DNA of 64,000 nucleotides from Thermus arciformis (GTDB lineage: Bacteria > Deinococcota > Deinococci > Deinococcales > Thermaceae): positions 1 to 64,000 of the forward strand of contig NZ_FNBC01000008.1 in NCBI RefSeq assembly GCF_900102145.1, in the 5' to 3' direction. The notes below the pieces were generated by a model, which did not search any database, was not told the DNA's origin, and saw nothing but the letters and a program-made list of their open reading frames with translations. Both the position numbers and the translations under genes were made by a program. Shown here piece by piece: positions 16,733 through 22,739 of this stretch (its first letter is position 1; each line of letters begins with the position of its first letter).

Positions 16733-18028
16733 ATGGACTTCCCCTTTTATACCCCCAAGGACGCCTTCCCCGTGGGCGGGGCGGTGCGGGACCTCCTCCT
16801 GGGAAGGCGCCCCAAGGACCTGGACTACGCCGCCTTGGACCCGCAAAAGGCGGCCGAGGAGGCGCAAAGGCGCCTCGGGGGAAGCCTCTTCCCCCTGGAC
16901 CCCGAGCGGGGCCACTTCCGCCTGGTGGTGGGGGAAAGGACCCTGGACTTCACCCCCTTGGAGGGGAGGCCGGAAGAAGACCTCCTCCGGCGGGACTACC
17001 GCCTAAACGCCCTCCTCTGGAGGCGGGGCGCGGTCTTTGGCCTAGAGGGGGTGGAGGAGGACCTGAGGCGGCGCCTCCTCGTCCCCGTGCGGGAGGAAAA
17101 CCTCTACCAGGACCACCTGCGGAGCCTCCGGGGGGTGCGCCTTTCCGCCACCTTGGGCTTCGGGCTTCCCCGGAGGACCCGGGAGGCCCTTGGCCGCCAC
17201 GCCCGGTTCCTCCAGGCCCACCCCGAGGCCATTCCCGCGCGGGAAAGGGTGAGGGAGGAGCTTGCGCGGCTCCTCCTCTCCCCAAAGGCGGCCTACGGCC
17301 TCCGCCTTCTGGAGAGGGTAGGGCTCCTTGGGGTCTACCTCCCCGAGCTCGCCCTCCTCGTGGGCCTCCATCAAGGCGGGGTGCACCACCTCCCCGCTTG
17401 GGAGCACACCTTGAGCGTGGTCTTCCACCTCCTCTGGCTCTGGCCCGAGGCCCCCCTCGAGGCCCGCCTCGCCGCCCTCTTCCACGACGTGGGCAAGCCC
17501 CTCACCCGCCGCTTTGACCCCGAGGTGGGCCGCTTCCGCTTCCTGGGCCACGCCGAGGTGGGGGCGGAGATCGCCCGGGCAAGCCTCCTTTGGCTCCGCT
17601 TCCCCAAGGAGGGGGTGGAGCGGGTGGCGGGCCTCGTGCGCCGCCACATGGACCGCCCCCCCGAGGAGAGGAAGGCCCTCCGCCGCTTCCTCCTGAAGCG
17701 TCAGGACCTCCTCCCCGACCTCGTCTACCTCATGGCGGCGGACCGCCTGGCGGCGAAGGGCGTGGAGGCCGAGGCCTGGGAGGTGCTCGGGCGCTACGGG
17801 GAGGCCCTGAAAGACCCCCTGCCGCAAAGGCCCCTCCTCTCCGGGGAGGAGGTGATGGCCCTTCTGGGCCTGCGGGAAGGCCCCGAGGTGGGAAGGGCCC
17901 TGAAGGCCCTCCTCGAGGCCCAGGCGGAGGGCCGGGTGGGGACCGAGGAGGAGGCCCGGGCCTTTCTCCTATATTGGAAGGGTGGAAGGGAGGCTCAGGC
18001 TTCGGGAACCCCAGATCACCCCCGTTGA
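16733..18028 (+). CDS. cca: tRNA nucleotidyltransferase / poly(A) polymerase family with HD domain
   Basis: A 431-residue class II nucleotidyltransferase. The head has GGAVRDLLLGRRPKDLDYA (GG-R-DLLL-DxD, residues about 14-32), followed by FTPLEGRPEEDLLRRDYRLNALL and the nucleotide-recognition helices. A C-terminal HD domain is marked by HHLPAWEHTL and FHDVGKP (about residues 255-275). It repairs or adds the tRNA 3' CCA end, or part of it. The conserved head begins a few residues after the ATG at 16733, so this start is credible even though it touches the coaE ATG. The 3' end overlaps the MEMO-family gene by 47 bp. Confidence 0.88.
   Translation: MDFPFYTPKDAFPVGGAVRDLLLGRRPKDLDYAALDPQKAAEEAQRRLGGSLFPLDPERGHFRLVVGERTLDFTPLEGRPEEDLLRRDYRLNALLWRRGAVFGLEGVEEDLRRRLLVPVREENLYQDHLRSLRGVRLSATLGFGLPRRTREALGRHARFLQAHPEAIPARERVREELARLLLSPKAAYGLRLLERVGLLGVYLPELALLVGLHQGGVHHLPAWEHTLSVVFHLLWLWPEAPLEARLAALFHDVGKPLTRRFDPEVGRFRFLGHAEVGAEIARASLLWLRFPKEGVERVAGLVRRHMDRPPEERKALRRFLLKRQDLLPDLVYLMAADRLAAKGVEAEAWEVLGRYGEALKDPLPQRPLLSGEEVMALLGLREGPEVGRALKALLEAQAEGRVGTEEEARAFLLYWKGGREAQASGTPDHPR
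16746..16751 (-). promoter_or_regulatory. -10 element of the coaE operon, inside the cca coding sequence
   Basis: TATAAA on the minus strand is followed after 13 nt by the coaE ATG, with GGGGA between them. The divergent cca gene starts at 16733, so this promoter lies within its first codons. Confidence 0.5.
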
Positions 18029-19094
18029 GGGGGGCTTTCTGGTCTCCGACCCCTACGGGGTCTACGAGAAGCCCCTGGCCCTCACCGAGGGCGGGCTTTT
18101 CCTCCTCTCCCTCATGGAGGGGAGGACCCTGGAGGAGGTGCAGGAGGAGGTGTTCAAGCGCCACGGGGTCCTGGTGCCGAGGAAGGAGCTGGAAGAGCTG
18201 GCGAAGGCCCTGGAGGAGGCGGGCCTCCTCCTCACGGAAAGGGTGGAGGCGAGGCTTAGGGAGGAGGAAGAGAGGCTCAGGCGGGAGCGGCCCATGCGCC
18301 TCGCCGGGCTTTCCTACCCCCAAGGGGAGCGGGAGGCCCGGGCCTTCCTCGAGGCCTTCCGGGCGAGCTACCCCGGGGAAGGAAGGGAAGCGGAGGTCCT
18401 CCTCATGCCCCACCTGGAGCCAAGCCGGGTCCCCGAGGTCTACGGGGCGGCCCTCGCCGCCTTGGAGAAGACCCCGCCCCCTGAGCGCGTCTACCTGGTG
18501 GGGGTCGCCCACAGGCCGCTTAAGGAGAGGGCCGCCGCCCTCCCCGTGCCCTTCCAGACCCCCTTCGGCCCCGCCCTGCCGGACCTCCCCGCCCTCCAGG
18601 CCCTGGACGCCCTCCTTCCCTTTGAGCTCTTTAACACGCCCCTCGCCTTCCGGGAGGAGCACAGCCTGGAGCTTCCCCTCTTCTTCCTGAAGGGGCGGTT
18701 CCCCGAGGCCCGCGTCCTTCCCCTCCTCGTGGGGCGGCGAAGCCCGGAGCTCGGGGAGGCCCTCAAGGTGGTCCTGCGGGACTTCCCGGGGCTTCTCGTC
18801 CTCGCTGTGGACCTCTCCCACGTGGGGCCCCGCTTCGGGGACCCTCCCCTCACCCGCCCCCTGGCGGAGGAGGCGAGGCGGCGGGACCTGGGCTTCCTGG
18901 AACGGATCGCGGAAGGGGCGCCGGAGGCCGCCCTCGCCCTCCTCGGGGAAAACCCCACCCGCATAGACGGGGTGGAGGTGGTGGCAAGCCTCCTCCCCCT
19001 CCTCCGGGGAAGGAGGGGCGAAGTCCTGGCCCACCGCCTGGACCTCGAGGCCCCCACCCTAAGCGCCGTGGGGGCGGGGACCCTGGTCCTCTAA
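17982..19094 (+). CDS. MEMO-family protein with N-terminal PqqD/winged-helix-like domain
   Basis: A 370-residue protein in two parts. Residues about 105-370 are a MEMO (AmmeMemoRadiSam protein B) domain, a fold related to non-haem-iron dioxygenases: RLAGLSYP (AGxFYP), MPHLEPSR (PHAGY), EEHSLELPLFFL (EHSLExQLPFL) and VDLSHVGPRFG (DLSHYG) are all recognisable. The Tyr and Gly of the PHAGY motif are changed. Residues 1-100 (TEGGLFLLSLMEGRTLEEVQ and onward) look like the small PqqD/RRE winged-helix domain that binds peptides in RiPP pathways. Start is GTG 17982 with weak ribosome-binding signal. Function is unknown; no radical SAM or AMMECR1 partner is adjacent. Confidence 0.75.
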   Translation: MEGRLRLREPQITPVEGGFLVSDPYGVYEKPLALTEGGLFLLSLMEGRTLEEVQEEVFKRHGVLVPRKELEELAKALEEAGLLLTERVEARLREEEERLRRERPMRLAGLSYPQGEREARAFLEAFRASYPGEGREAEVLLMPHLEPSRVPEVYGAALAALEKTPPPERVYLVGVAHRPLKERAAALPVPFQTPFGPALPDLPALQALDALLPFELFNTPLAFREEHSLELPLFFLKGRFPEARVLPLLVGRRSPELGEALKVVLRDFPGLLVLAVDLSHVGPRFGDPPLTRPLAEEARRRDLGFLERIAEGAPEAALALLGENPTRIDGVEVVASLLPLLRGRRGEVLAHRLDLEAPTLSAVGAGTLVL

Positions 19095-19123: not shown

Positions 19124-19155
19124 GGCCCGGGCGCCGAACCGCCCGGGCCCCTTTT
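19124..19155 (+). terminator. Terminator after the MEMO-family gene
   Basis: A perfect 10-bp G+C stem (19124-19133 with 19140-19149) with a 6-nt loop is followed by CCTTTT. It ends the cca-MEMO transcript and insulates the CRISPR locus. The next 100 bp (19156-19255) hold nothing I can recognise. Confidence 0.85.
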
Positions 19156-19255: not shown

Positions 19256-19365
19256 ACGACAATCCCCTTACGGGGCTCAATTCCTCGCAACGAGAAGAAG
19301 GACGCCCAAACCCTCCGCCGCGAGCTTCTGTCGCAATCTCCTTACGGGGCTCAATCTCTTGCAAT
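19256..19365 (-). CRISPR. Distal, degenerate CRISPR remnant (2 repeats, 1 spacer)
   Basis: Two 36-bp repeats (19256-19291 and 19330-19365) flank a 38-bp spacer. In the transcribed (minus) orientation the inner one reads AAGAGATTGAGCCCCG and ends GGATTGCGAC, differing from the leader-proximal repeats at a few positions. The outer one has decayed at both ends, as is usual for the trailer end of an array. The remnant is separated from the main array by 398 bp that carry a lipoprotein gene. Confidence 0.85.
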
Positions 19366-19391
19366 TCTCCTGGGGGAGCGTTTGCGGGCCA

Positions 19392-19748
19392 TCAGAGCCG
19401 TTCAAAACGCTTGTCTATGAGTCCATAGAGGCTATCTGTGAACTCGCCATAACATGTGATGATGGCCCCCTGGCCCTGATTGAGAGCGCTACAGGTAGCT
19501 TTAGCCGGACTTGTAGCTCCGAGGGCGCGGAACGCGATGAGGGGATACGTGATGAGCTCCACCGTGGTTTCGGACGCTCGGACCACTTGCCAGCGCTCAA
19601 ACCATTGGTGGGGCTGAATGGAAGGAGCTTCGGCCATCAGATAGGCGATCAGCTCCTGGGCCGTTGCCTTGTAGACGGGACGGGGTTGAGTTACTGAAGG
19701 TGCGCAAGCGCTCAGGGCCAACACGAACAAAAGCCATATCCGCCGCAT
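19392..19748 (-). CDS. Small lipoprotein of low G+C, located inside the CRISPR locus
   Basis: A 118-residue predicted lipoprotein: MRRIWLLFVLALSAC is a signal peptide ending in a lipobox with the modified Cys at about residue 15. The mature part has no domain I recognise; it has two further Cys residues (ATCSALNQ and IITCYG), which might form a disulfide. AGGAGG lies 5 nt before the ATG at 19748, which decides this start over the GTG at 19754. The gene has clearly lower G+C and less biased codons than all neighbours, suggesting recent transfer. It is bounded by CRISPR repeats (19365 and 19764) and reads in the same direction as the array. Only 15 bp separate its ATG from the repeat upstream. 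Confidence 0.75.
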   Translation of the reverse strand: MRRIWLLFVLALSACAPSVTQPRPVYKATAQELIAYLMAEAPSIQPHQWFERWQVVRASETTVELITYPLIAFRALGATSPAKATCSALNQGQGAIITCYGEFTDSLYGLIDKRFERL

Positions 19749-19763
19749 ATTCACCTCCTACAT

Positions 19764-20027
19764 GTCGCAATCCCCTTACGGGGCTCAAGCTCTTGCAACG
19801 GGAGAGGATTGGGTACACCAATACCTACCGCCTCAACCTGTCGCAATCCCCTTACGGGACTCAAGCTCTTGCAACCCGTGGAGGAGTCGCTTAGTTCCGC
19901 GGGCCTCGACCCCGTCGCAATCCCCTTACGGGGCTCAAGCTCTTGCAACGGTGGAGGTGATGGAGATGCGGCGGTGGCAAATGGTGTCTGAGTCGCAATC
20001 CCCTTACGGGGCTCAAGCTCTTGCAAC
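19764..20027 (-). CRISPR. CRISPR array, leader-proximal part (4 repeats, 3 spacers)
   Basis: Four 36-bp repeats lie at 19764-19799, 19840-19875 (one mismatch), 19914-19949 and 19992-20027, with spacers of 40, 38 and 42 bp. On the minus strand each repeat begins GTTGCAAGAGCTTGAGCCCC and ends GTAAGGGGATTGCGAC, with the internal palindrome CCCC-TTAC-GGGG. This is a variant of a repeat widespread in Thermus. Transcription from the right is inferred from repeat decay at the left end and from the ATTGCGAC-type 3' terminus that becomes the crRNA 5' handle. No cas gene is in the window. Confidence 0.95.
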
Positions 20028-20263
20028 TCTACCCCCCTCAGAACCCCGTCCTGGACGGCACCGCTAGAGGGGGGGGTTTGTGAGAAAGATGAAGCTTGGA
20101 ATATGCACACGGCGAATAACGGGGTTTTTCGGGGGTTTGGGCCGATGGCAAGCCACAGGAGGAAGGGGCGATGAGAAGGGGAAAGCGCATATTCGCCTTC
20201 GGCAAGAGGAAAACTGGCTTTCAAGGTCCCCACCCGGAGGTCCGGGTTAGGGGGAGTATAGCA
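20028..20263 (-). promoter_or_regulatory. Putative CRISPR leader with an extended -10 promoter
   Basis: The segment adjoining the first repeat is richer in A+T than its surroundings and has no convincing gene. On the minus strand TGC-TATACT (20263-20255) is an extended -10 element that would start transcription near 20248, about 220 nt before the first repeat. TTGACC further upstream is spaced too widely (23 bp) to be its -35. Leader status is inferred from position and array polarity. Confidence 0.45.
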
Positions 20264-20501
20264 CACACCGCAACGTTGGGCCAGGTCAAAATTTCGGTGA
20301 AGAAAGGGCTCCTGCACTGAGCTTTACTTTTCAAAGTCCAAAGAAAGCCGGTTGCATCGTAATTTTGCTGACAAGTATAGCCAAGGCCCGCCCTATCGCC
20401 AGAGGTAAAAGGGCGTGTACTCCCCCCGTCCCAAAAGGGCCGCCTTCAGCCGCTGGGCCTGCACTCCCCCAGGGGGTTGCAGAACCCCAGGGGGTGGGCA
20501 C
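20264..20501. other. Non-coding stretch between CRISPR leader and rnr
   Basis: No credible gene is seen. Near the end of rnr, 20466-20497 forms an imperfect hairpin (CCCCC...GGGGTT/AACCCC...GGGGG) that could help end the rnr transcript, but no T run follows on the minus strand. Confidence 0.4.
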
Positions 20502-22739
20502 TTAGCGGCGCCGCTTCCTGCGGGCCCGGGTCCTCGCCGGGCGGGACTCTTGGGACTCCTTAGGGGTCCACTCGCCGAAGTAGATGGTGTTCACCGTGGC
20601 CCGTTCGGGACGGGTGTCCCGGGTCCTGTCCTTGGGGGGTCCTACCACTTTGCGCATATCCTCCTCCTTTTCCTTCTTCCTTTTGCCTGGGGTCTTGACC
20701 TCCCCTTGGGCTTCCACGTAGGGCACCAGGTCCACCTGGCGAAGCCTGGGGTTGGCGGCGGCGATGACCACCTCCATCTCGTCCCCCAGGCGGATCCTCT
20801 TCCCCTTGGGGCCAAGGAGGGCCATGGCCTCCTCGCTGTAGGTGTAAGGCCCCAGGGCCTCGAGGCGCACCAGGCCCTCCACCCCGTTGGGCAGGGTCAC
20901 GAAGGCCCCGAAGTTCGCCACCCCCGTGACCTTCCCCAAAAAGCGCTCCCCCACGTGGAGCTCGGCCCACTTGGCCATGTAGTACTTGGTGAGCTCCCGC
21001 TCGGCGGCCTCGGCCTTCCGCTCCATCTCCGAAGCGTGGTCGGCGACGGCGGGGAAGGCCGTAAGCCACCTGGCCTTCCGCCCCTGGGTGAGGGTGCGGC
21101 GCAAGGCCGCCTTCAGCACCCGGTGGACCACCAGGTCCGGGTAGCGGCGGATGGGGCTCGTGAAGTGCAGGTAGTGCTCCATGGCGAGGCCGAAGTGGCC
21201 CAGGTTCTCCGCGGCGTAGCGGGCGAGGCGCAAGGAGCGGAGGACGAGGGAGGCCACCACGGGCTCCTCCGGGCGGCCCTTGGCCTCCAGGAGGACCCGC
21301 TGCAACGCCTTGGAGGAGACCTCCTCGGGAAGACTGTAGCCGAGGCGGGCCAGGGCCAGCCGTAGCTTGCCGTAGGCCTCCTCCAAGGGCTCCTCGTGCA
21401 CCCGGTAGAGGCCGGGAAGGCCCTTTTGCACCAGGTGCTCGGCCACGAGCCGGTTGGCGAGGAGCATGAGCTCCTCAATGAGGCTTCTGGCCTTGGGCTC
21501 CGCCTGGGGGATGAGGTGGAGCACCCCTTCCTCCACCTCCACCTTCACCTCGGGGAAGCTGAAGTCCAAGGCGCCCTCCTCCAGGCGCTTCTCCCGCATC
21601 CTCTGCGTGAGGTCCAGAAGGAGGCGCAGGTCCTCCGCCAGGAAGGCGTGCTCCTCGGGAAGGCCGAACCCCTCGGCGAAGGCCTCCACCTCGGTGTAGG
21701 TGAGGCGGGCCACGCTCCGGATGACCCCTTCCCGGAAGCGGACCCGCTTGACCTTTAGGTCCTCCGTGAGGTCCACGAGGACGGAGAGGACCAGGCGGTC
21801 CTCCCCCGGCCTCAAGGAGCAAACCCCGTTGGAAAGCCTTTCGGGAAGCATGGGGAGGACCCGCCCCGGGAGGTAGACGCTGGTGCCCCTTAGGAAGGCC
21901 TCCTGGTCCAGGGGGCTTCCCTCCTTCACGTAGTGGGAGACGTCGGCGATGTGGACCCCGATGCGGTAGCCCCCGGGCAGGCGCTCCACGTGGATGGCGT
22001 CGTCAAAGTCCTTGGCGTCCACCCCGTCTATGGTGAAGACGCGAAGGCCCCTGAAGTCCTCCCGCCTCGCAAGCTCCGCCTCGGGGATCTCCAGGGGGAT
22101 GGCCTCGGCCTCCCTCAGCACCTCCTCGGGGAACTCGGCGCGAAGGCCGTACTTGGCGATGACGGCCTCCGTCTCCGTCTCGGGGGCCTCCCCCTCCCCC
22201 AGGTACGCCAGGAAGGTCCCGTAGGGGCGCTTGCCGTAGTGGACCTGGACCACGATGCGGCTTCCCCGCTTCAGGCCCTCGAGGCCCTCGGGGGAAAGCC
22301 TGAGCTCGGGAAGCCCGGGCTCGTCGGGGAGGAGGAGGGCGTACCCCTTGCGGAAGTCCAGCCTCCCCACCACCCGCTCCCGCGCCCGCTTGAGGACCCG
22401 CTCCACCACCCCCCAGGGCCTCCCGTCCCGCCCCGGGGGCATGAGGCGGGCCTCCACCAGGTCGCCCGGCCAGGCGTCCTGGGTGTACCCCGGGGGGATG
22501 AAGAGGTCCCCCTCGGGGAGGCGGACGAAGCCGTACCCGTCCCGGTGGAGGCTTAGGGGCCCCTGGACCTTCTGGGGGAGGGCGTAGCGGCTTCCCCGCT
22601 TCTCCAGGAGGCCTTCCCGCACCAAGGCCCCGAGGTAGGCCTTGGCCTCCCGCTTGGAGAGGCCGAAGCGGTGGAGGATCTCCTCCAGCCGGTGGGGCCT
22701 CCCGGTTTTCTTGAAAAACTCTAGAAGGGTTTCCTGCAT
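20502..22739 (-). CDS. rnr: Ribonuclease R
   Basis: A 745-residue 3'-5' exoribonuclease of the RNase II/R family. The N-terminus is a winged-helix domain (residues 1-60), followed by cold-shock domains (LSLHRDGYGFVRLP at about 65), the RNB catalytic domain with FTIDGVDAKDFDDAIH (the four metal-binding Asp residues, about 240-255) and HYLHFTSPIRRYPDLVVHR, an S1 domain (FLGKVTGVANFGAFVTLPNG), and a Lys/Arg-rich tail. The basic tail and helix-turn-helix-like start favour RNase R over RNase II. ATG at 22739 is preceded by AGGA and comes 1 bp after the aminotransferase stop. Confidence 0.95.
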   Translation of the reverse strand: MQETLLEFFKKTGRPHRLEEILHRFGLSKREAKAYLGALVREGLLEKRGSRYALPQKVQGPLSLHRDGYGFVRLPEGDLFIPPGYTQDAWPGDLVEARLMPPGRDGRPWGVVERVLKRARERVVGRLDFRKGYALLLPDEPGLPELRLSPEGLEGLKRGSRIVVQVHYGKRPYGTFLAYLGEGEAPETETEAVIAKYGLRAEFPEEVLREAEAIPLEIPEAELARREDFRGLRVFTIDGVDAKDFDDAIHVERLPGGYRIGVHIADVSHYVKEGSPLDQEAFLRGTSVYLPGRVLPMLPERLSNGVCSLRPGEDRLVLSVLVDLTEDLKVKRVRFREGVIRSVARLTYTEVEAFAEGFGLPEEHAFLAEDLRLLLDLTQRMREKRLEEGALDFSFPEVKVEVEEGVLHLIPQAEPKARSLIEELMLLANRLVAEHLVQKGLPGLYRVHEEPLEEAYGKLRLALARLGYSLPEEVSSKALQRVLLEAKGRPEEPVVASLVLRSLRLARYAAENLGHFGLAMEHYLHFTSPIRRYPDLVVHRVLKAALRRTLTQGRKARWLTAFPAVADHASEMERKAEAAERELTKYYMAKWAELHVGERFLGKVTGVANFGAFVTLPNGVEGLVRLEALGPYTYSEEAMALLGPKGKRIRLGDEMEVVIAAANPRLRQVDLVPYVEAQGEVKTPGKRKKEKEEDMRKVVGPPKDRTRDTRPERATVNTIYFGEWTPKESQESRPARTRARRKRRR

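What the first reader, a model, noticed from the sequence alone, without database searches (positions are those of the whole stretch)
19256..20027. A low-G+C lipoprotein gene sits inside a CRISPR locus, bounded by repeats
The 398 bp from 19366 to 19763 replace a spacer between two CRISPR repeats. They hold one compact gene with its own AGGAGG, a lipobox signal peptide and much lower G+C than all neighbours. It is in the same orientation as the array, only 15 bp from the upstream repeat. With no visible promoter of its own, it may be transcribed from the CRISPR leader, so crRNA processing would release its mRNA. Possible origins are homologous recombination between repeats carrying phage or plasmid DNA, or an abnormally large acquisition. 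A surface lipoprotein could act in superinfection exclusion. I know of no described CRISPR cargo lipoprotein.
Basis: partly seen in the sequence, partly recalled or inferred. Interest (0 to 1): 0.78.

Follow-up and report, generated by a model that had tools for sequence, protein, structure and literature searches.

The report
Stray lipoprotein gene inside CRISPR array
In one Thermus genome a small foreign-looking lipoprotein gene sits where a CRISPR spacer should be; its relatives live at ordinary chromosomal sites in other bacteria of the phylum, so it is most likely an accidental passenger rather than a new part of CRISPR immunity.

Summary
Six type III-like CRISPR repeats lie on the minus strand at 19256-20027, and between the fourth and the decayed fifth lies a 398-bp insert instead of a ~40-bp spacer. 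It encodes a 118-aa lipoprotein (19748-19392, ribosome-binding site, lipobox LSAC). No close homologue was found in 26 other Thermus species, phages, plasmids, IMG/VR or GTDB contigs. The protein does belong to an unnamed family of small Deinococcota lipoproteins (leave-one-out E 9e-10 on the mature part). None of 22 family-like loci examined lies next to CRISPR-like repeats, and there is no phage or defence-family link. The closest species and a second one have an array at the same site without the insert.

Best explanation: a horizontally acquired gene captured once in the old, leader-distal end of the array, probably carried along in the pre-crRNA. Cas6 cleavage at the intact upstream repeat could free its ribosome-binding site; the downstream repeat has lost its predicted hairpin. 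Transcription and function are untested; superinfection exclusion is unsupported.

A possibly stronger by-product: IS1000-like IS110 elements repeatedly insert inside Thermus CRISPR repeats (11 of 20 left ends), with a bridge-RNA-like loop that changes with the target.

The parts
17982..19094 (+). left neighbour gene, conserved in all 27 Thermus genomes (looks MEMO1-like; name from memory)
19124..19149 (+). terminator-like hairpin of the left neighbour
19256..19291 (-). CRISPR repeat 6 (R''), decayed, terminal
19292..19329 (-). spacer, 38 bp
19330..19365 (-). CRISPR repeat 5 (R'), 3 changes, one breaking the CCCC/GGGG stem
19366..19763 (-). 398-bp insert in place of a spacer
19392..19748 (-). 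lipoprotein gene, 118 aa plus stop
19754..19759 (-). Shine-Dalgarno AGGAGG
19764..19799 (-). CRISPR repeat 4, perfect
19800..19839 (-). spacer matching Thermus phages Lalka8/27a/27b (92.9% over 42 nt)
19840..19875 (-). CRISPR repeat 3 (1 change)
19876..19913 (-). spacer, 38 bp
19914..19949 (-). CRISPR repeat 2, perfect
19950..19991 (-). spacer, 42 bp
19992..20027 (-). CRISPR repeat 1, leader-proximal, perfect
20028..20330 (-). leader, conserved with three other arrays
20502..22739 (-). right neighbour gene, conserved across the genus (looks RNase R-like; name from memory)

Best explanation
A complete small lipoprotein gene of a patchy Deinococcota family was acquired horizontally and captured once in the old, leader-distal part of a type III-like CRISPR array. 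The likely route is recombination or end-joining of incoming DNA in the array; the exact event is not resolved. It is a passenger, not a CRISPR component. It lies in array orientation close behind an intact repeat (15 bp, ribosome-binding site included), so it is probably transcribed weakly with the pre-crRNA. Cas6 cleavage 8 nt before the repeat end would leave a 23-nt 5' UTR with a free ribosome-binding site. The downstream repeat R' has lost its hairpin, so the RNA would run on to R''. The product would be a lipid-anchored envelope protein. Shown: location, orientation, gene structure, family membership, absence at the same locus in relatives, presence of Cas1, Cas6 and type III genes. Inferred: route of entry, transcription, processing, translation.
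For: Array at the same site without the insert in G026 (neighbour protein 99% identical) and G019; no array at the junction in the other species whose two flanks were compared. Insert absent from 26 other Thermus genomes. GC3 63% against 90-93% in neighbours. Family membership: a profile built without the query finds its mature part at 8.9e-10, best of 2000 shuffles 0.6; the family profile finds further members in genomes not used to build it, at 2e-28, 4e-27 and 1e-16. 22 such loci show no CRISPR-like repeats and the four contexts read differ. Position between good repeats and decayed terminal repeats. Cas1 next to an array with the identical repeat, Cas10/RAMP genes, Cas6. Repeat hairpin -11.7 kcal/mol against -3.8 for R'. 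Thermus type III crRNAs share an 8-nt 5' tag and are thought to be cut by Cas6 (PMC5256923).
Against: No donor sequence is known, so horizontal origin rests on composition and absence elsewhere. The gene is intact with little flank on either side (15 bp before the start, 26 bp after the stop), tighter than a random captured fragment would be; this hints at selection or a more specific event. No expression data.
Confidence: 0.62

Rival explanations
1. Functional array-borne cargo: the gene is kept because it is expressed from the CRISPR leader and protects the cell at its surface (for example superinfection exclusion), with crRNA processing trimming its mRNA.
For: Array orientation, ribosome-binding site right behind an intact repeat, intact frame, tight flanks. 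Lipoproteins are proposed as exclusion factors in IN93-like Thermus proviruses (PMC11437467).
Against: No PHROG, PADLOC, phage or viral-contig relative; IN93 has no match to the family profile; the family is not CRISPR-linked elsewhere; one occurrence only.
Confidence: 0.1
2. Dead passenger: the insert is neither transcribed usefully nor translated and is only a recent relic.
For: Old end of the array; single occurrence. The promoter scan found nothing, but it found none for the leader either, so it is uninformative.
Against: Frame, ribosome-binding site and lipobox are all intact.
Confidence: 0.15
3. Oversized spacer: Cas1-Cas2 integrated a ~398-bp piece at the leader and later spacers pushed it inwards.
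For: Insert lies exactly between repeats; Cas1 present.
Against: Other spacers in the examined arrays of this repeat family are 33-43 bp; such a length is far from what the integrase measures (general knowledge); a complete gene with its ribosome-binding site would be a coincidence.
Confidence: 0.06
4. IS110-type or other transposition placed the gene there.
For: IS1000-like elements insert in these same repeats, including this locus in G026.
Against: Those insertions split the repeat at a TG core; both repeats beside the lipoprotein gene are complete and no element end is present.
Confidence: 0.04
5. Assembly chimera at a 36-bp repeat.
For: 88-contig draft; several contigs end exactly in this repeat.
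Against: Left repeat R' is unique in the genome and ties the gene to the left flank; right repeats and leader tie to the right flank of the same locus in G026.
Confidence: 0.03

Closest known systems
Type III CRISPR arrays of Thermus (PMC6452258; Rfam CRISPR-DR36)
   Same: Repeat type, leader, ~40-bp spacers, cas genes elsewhere in the genome
   Different: One spacer position holds a 398-bp protein gene
Unnamed small Deinococcota lipoprotein family (members in two other Thermaceae genera and in a Trueperaceae-like family)
   Same: Lipobox CAP, length about 120-130 aa, conserved pattern through to the C-terminal F-x-R-L/V
   Different: Only 20-24% identity; the other members examined are not at CRISPR loci
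CRISPR arrays interrupted by insertion sequences (here the IS110 relics in G000:C81 and G026)
   Same: Non-spacer DNA inside an array
   Different: The lipoprotein insert carries no transposase, splits no repeat and has no element ends
BamC N-terminal domain, Flpp3 and KA1-like folds (fold comparison only)
   Same: Similar two-helix, four-strand arrangement; BamC and Flpp3 are also envelope lipoproteins (general knowledge)
   Different: Z 6.5-8.6, in the range of common arrangements; no sequence relation found

Membership tests
Type III-like Thermus CRISPR array | 36-bp repeats of the known class at regular spacing | tested here: met
   repeat class in PMC6452258
Type III-like Thermus CRISPR array | Leader at one end, shared with other arrays | tested here: met
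Type III-like Thermus CRISPR array | Spacers from phages | tested here: met
   one spacer matches Lalka phages at 92.9%
Type III-like Thermus CRISPR array | All spacers of uniform length (usual, not strictly defining) | tested here: not met
   398-bp insert in one position
Small Deinococcota lipoprotein family | Profile match of the mature part, signal peptide left out | tested here: met
   E 8.9e-10 leave-one-out
Small Deinococcota lipoprotein family | Lipobox and lipidation | tested here: inconclusive
   lipobox LSAC present; lipidation itself needs the bench
Phage superinfection-exclusion lipoproteins | Homology to or location in phage/prophage | tested here: not met
Known anti-phage defence genes (PADLOC) | Profile match | tested here: not met
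IS110 insertion | Target split at a core dinucleotide, element ends present | tested here: not met
   both bounding repeats complete, no element ends

The most novel reading that the evidence does not exclude
A protein gene that has taken a spacer's place and lives off the array: driven by the CRISPR leader, its mRNA freed by Cas6 at the repeat in front, making CRISPR arrays expression sites for captured genes.
Probability: 0.08. Interest if true: 0.75.

Novelty: new variant of a known kind. Interest (0 to 1): 0.36.

Why it matters
If expressed, it would show that an array can carry and process a protein-coding message, and it offers a simple natural test of what Cas6 does to an mRNA placed between repeats. 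If it is a passenger, as seems likelier, it still documents that arrays pick up non-spacer genes. The by-product may matter more: IS110 elements guided to CRISPR repeats would be a way for mobile elements to use the immune locus as a landing pad, and would reverse a published reading of the shared 32-bp sequence.

Tried and rejected
Close homologues: tblastn in phages and plasmids, blastn of the insert, IMG/VR and GTDB peptide scans, 26 Thermus genomes: none. The single Thermus protein hit, in G019, aligns with the signal peptide region of an unrelated 393-aa protein and was dropped. A 24-of-25-bp match of the insert start in two Thermus genomes (23 of 25 in a third) is the start of an unrelated gene sharing a ribosome-binding site and MRR codons; set aside. 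Pfam, NCBIfam, PHROGs, PADLOC and PDB sequence searches: nothing usable. Structure prediction worked (pLDDT 86, three-sequence alignment), but the fold matches are in the common range and name no function. The alignment of all ten family members was too diverged for a viral scan. Promoter scan: no site on either strand, not even in the leader, so uninformative. Literature: searches for genes inside arrays and for interrupted arrays showed no precedent among the listed titles; the papers were not read through and subscription journals are not covered.

Full report
What is there. The window lies in a Thermus draft genome (G000, contig C46). Between two conserved convergent genes (17982-19094 plus strand, 20502-22739 minus strand) lies a CRISPR array read on the minus strand, with a leader at 20028-20330. 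All six repeats pass Rfam's CRISPR-DR36 threshold. From the leader end there are four good repeats with spacers of 42, 38 and 40 bp, then a 398-bp insert, then two decayed repeats with a 38-bp spacer. The leader matches that of another array in the same genome (C81, beside cas1 and type III genes, same repeat) and of arrays at the same site in G026 and G019. One spacer matches Lalka phages of Thermus at 92.9%.

The gene. The insert holds a 118-aa frame starting 15 bp from the repeat with AGGAGG at the right distance and an LSAC lipobox. The frame length alone would be weak evidence (139 of 2000 shuffles reach it). The gene is believed because distant relatives exist. A search of 111 genomes of the phylum gave weak matches; aligned, they share CAP at the lipobox and a C-terminal F-x-R-L/V pattern. 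A profile built without the query and without the signal peptide finds it at 8.9e-10, best shuffle 0.6. The matches were collected with the query, so this figure is somewhat flattered. But the profile also finds members in genomes that did not go into it, at 2e-28, 4e-27 and 1e-16, so the family is coherent. None of 22 such loci has CRISPR-like repeats nearby, and four neighbourhoods read by eye share nothing obvious.

Where it came from. No other Thermus species genome has the gene (the genus matches there are confined to signal-peptide regions). The closest species, G026, has the same array site with six repeats and no insert; its array ends in a truncated IS110 element. GC3 is 63%, far from 90-93% of the neighbours. 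Phages, plasmids, viral contigs and GTDB contigs gave no close relative. Horizontal origin is therefore inferred from composition and distribution; the donor is unknown. The bounding repeats are complete, so an IS110-like insertion, which splits the repeat at TG, is not the route. Recombination through repeats or end-joining is left; an oversized Cas1 acquisition is possible but would need an extreme length and the luck of taking a whole gene.

How it would work. Cas6 and type III effector genes are in the genome. In T. thermophilus, type III crRNAs carry an 8-nt 5' tag and are thought to be made by Cas6 (PMC5256923). Cleavage at repeat 4, whose hairpin is intact (-11.7 kcal/mol), would give a 23-nt 5' UTR with a free ribosome-binding site. 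In R' a G-to-A change breaks the stem (-3.8 kcal/mol), while R'' keeps it (-9.8), so a trimmed message would end at R''. This is inference from sequence; no expression data exist. The protein is predicted as two main helices and four strands with weak fold resemblance to KA1, Flpp3 and BamC-type domains, which names no function.

Assembly. The draft breaks at this repeat in several places, so a chimera was considered. R' is unique in the genome and both outer flanks are those of one locus in G026, which makes a misplaced gene unlikely; missing spacers at perfect repeats remain possible.

By-product. The 765-bp gap in the C81 array is a 728-bp IS110-family relic whose ends sit inside a repeat at a TG core, followed by the rest of the repeat and a 39-bp spacer. 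In 8 Thermus genomes 11 of 20 left ends of this element lie in CRISPR repeats, of several repeat sequences. The non-coding right end carries a loop reading CAATCCC in CRISPR-targeted copies (target GGGATTG) and CAAAGTC in G005 copies (target GCTTTG), and CAACATAGG where the target has CAACATAGG, as expected of an IS110 bridge RNA (PMC11208160). A 2019 survey saw 32 bp shared between IS1000 and CRISPR repeats and read it as recruitment by CRISPR (PMC6352166); 32 nt is the repeat up to and including TG, so the element's published end probably contains part of a repeat. That the elements here are IS1000 itself was not tested against the IS1000 sequence; the name rests on family, genus and the shared repeat half.

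Verdict. Real, rare and probably a passenger. Interest is moderate; the regulatory reading is testable but unsupported so far.

Noticed in passing
L139:1450-2240 (G000:C81 array), L138/L146 (G026), L137/L151 (G016), L142/L149/L152 (G021), L143 (G011), L148 (G000:C43), L156 (G005): IS1000-like IS110 elements inserted inside CRISPR repeats at a TG core (GGGGAT-TG-ATAC...ACA-TG-CGAC); 11 of 20 left ends found in 8 Thermus genomes. The published 32-bp identity between IS1000 and CRISPR repeats (PMC6352166) is probably the target part of the repeat.
   Followed up: partly
L139/L146/L149/L152 against L140 and L147 (alignment A5): A bridge-RNA-like loop in the element's non-coding right end changes with the target: CAATCCC for GGGATTG (CRISPR repeat), CAAAGTC and CAACATAGG for the G005 target GCTTTG-CAACATAGG.
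   Followed up: partly
window 19800-19839: Spacer matches an unannotated stretch of Thermus phages Lalka8, Lalka27a and Lalka27b at 92.9% over 42 nt.
   Followed up: yes
G000:C81, L094:18-15372: Type III genes with Cas1, Csm6-type HEPN, Cas10/Cmr2 and a protein with a weak Card1 CARF match; the array there contains the same 39-bp spacer twice.
   Followed up: no
L057/L059 (G006:C1:217922-219023): The left neighbour gene appears interrupted (a TAG and a split match) in one Thermus genome.
   Followed up: no
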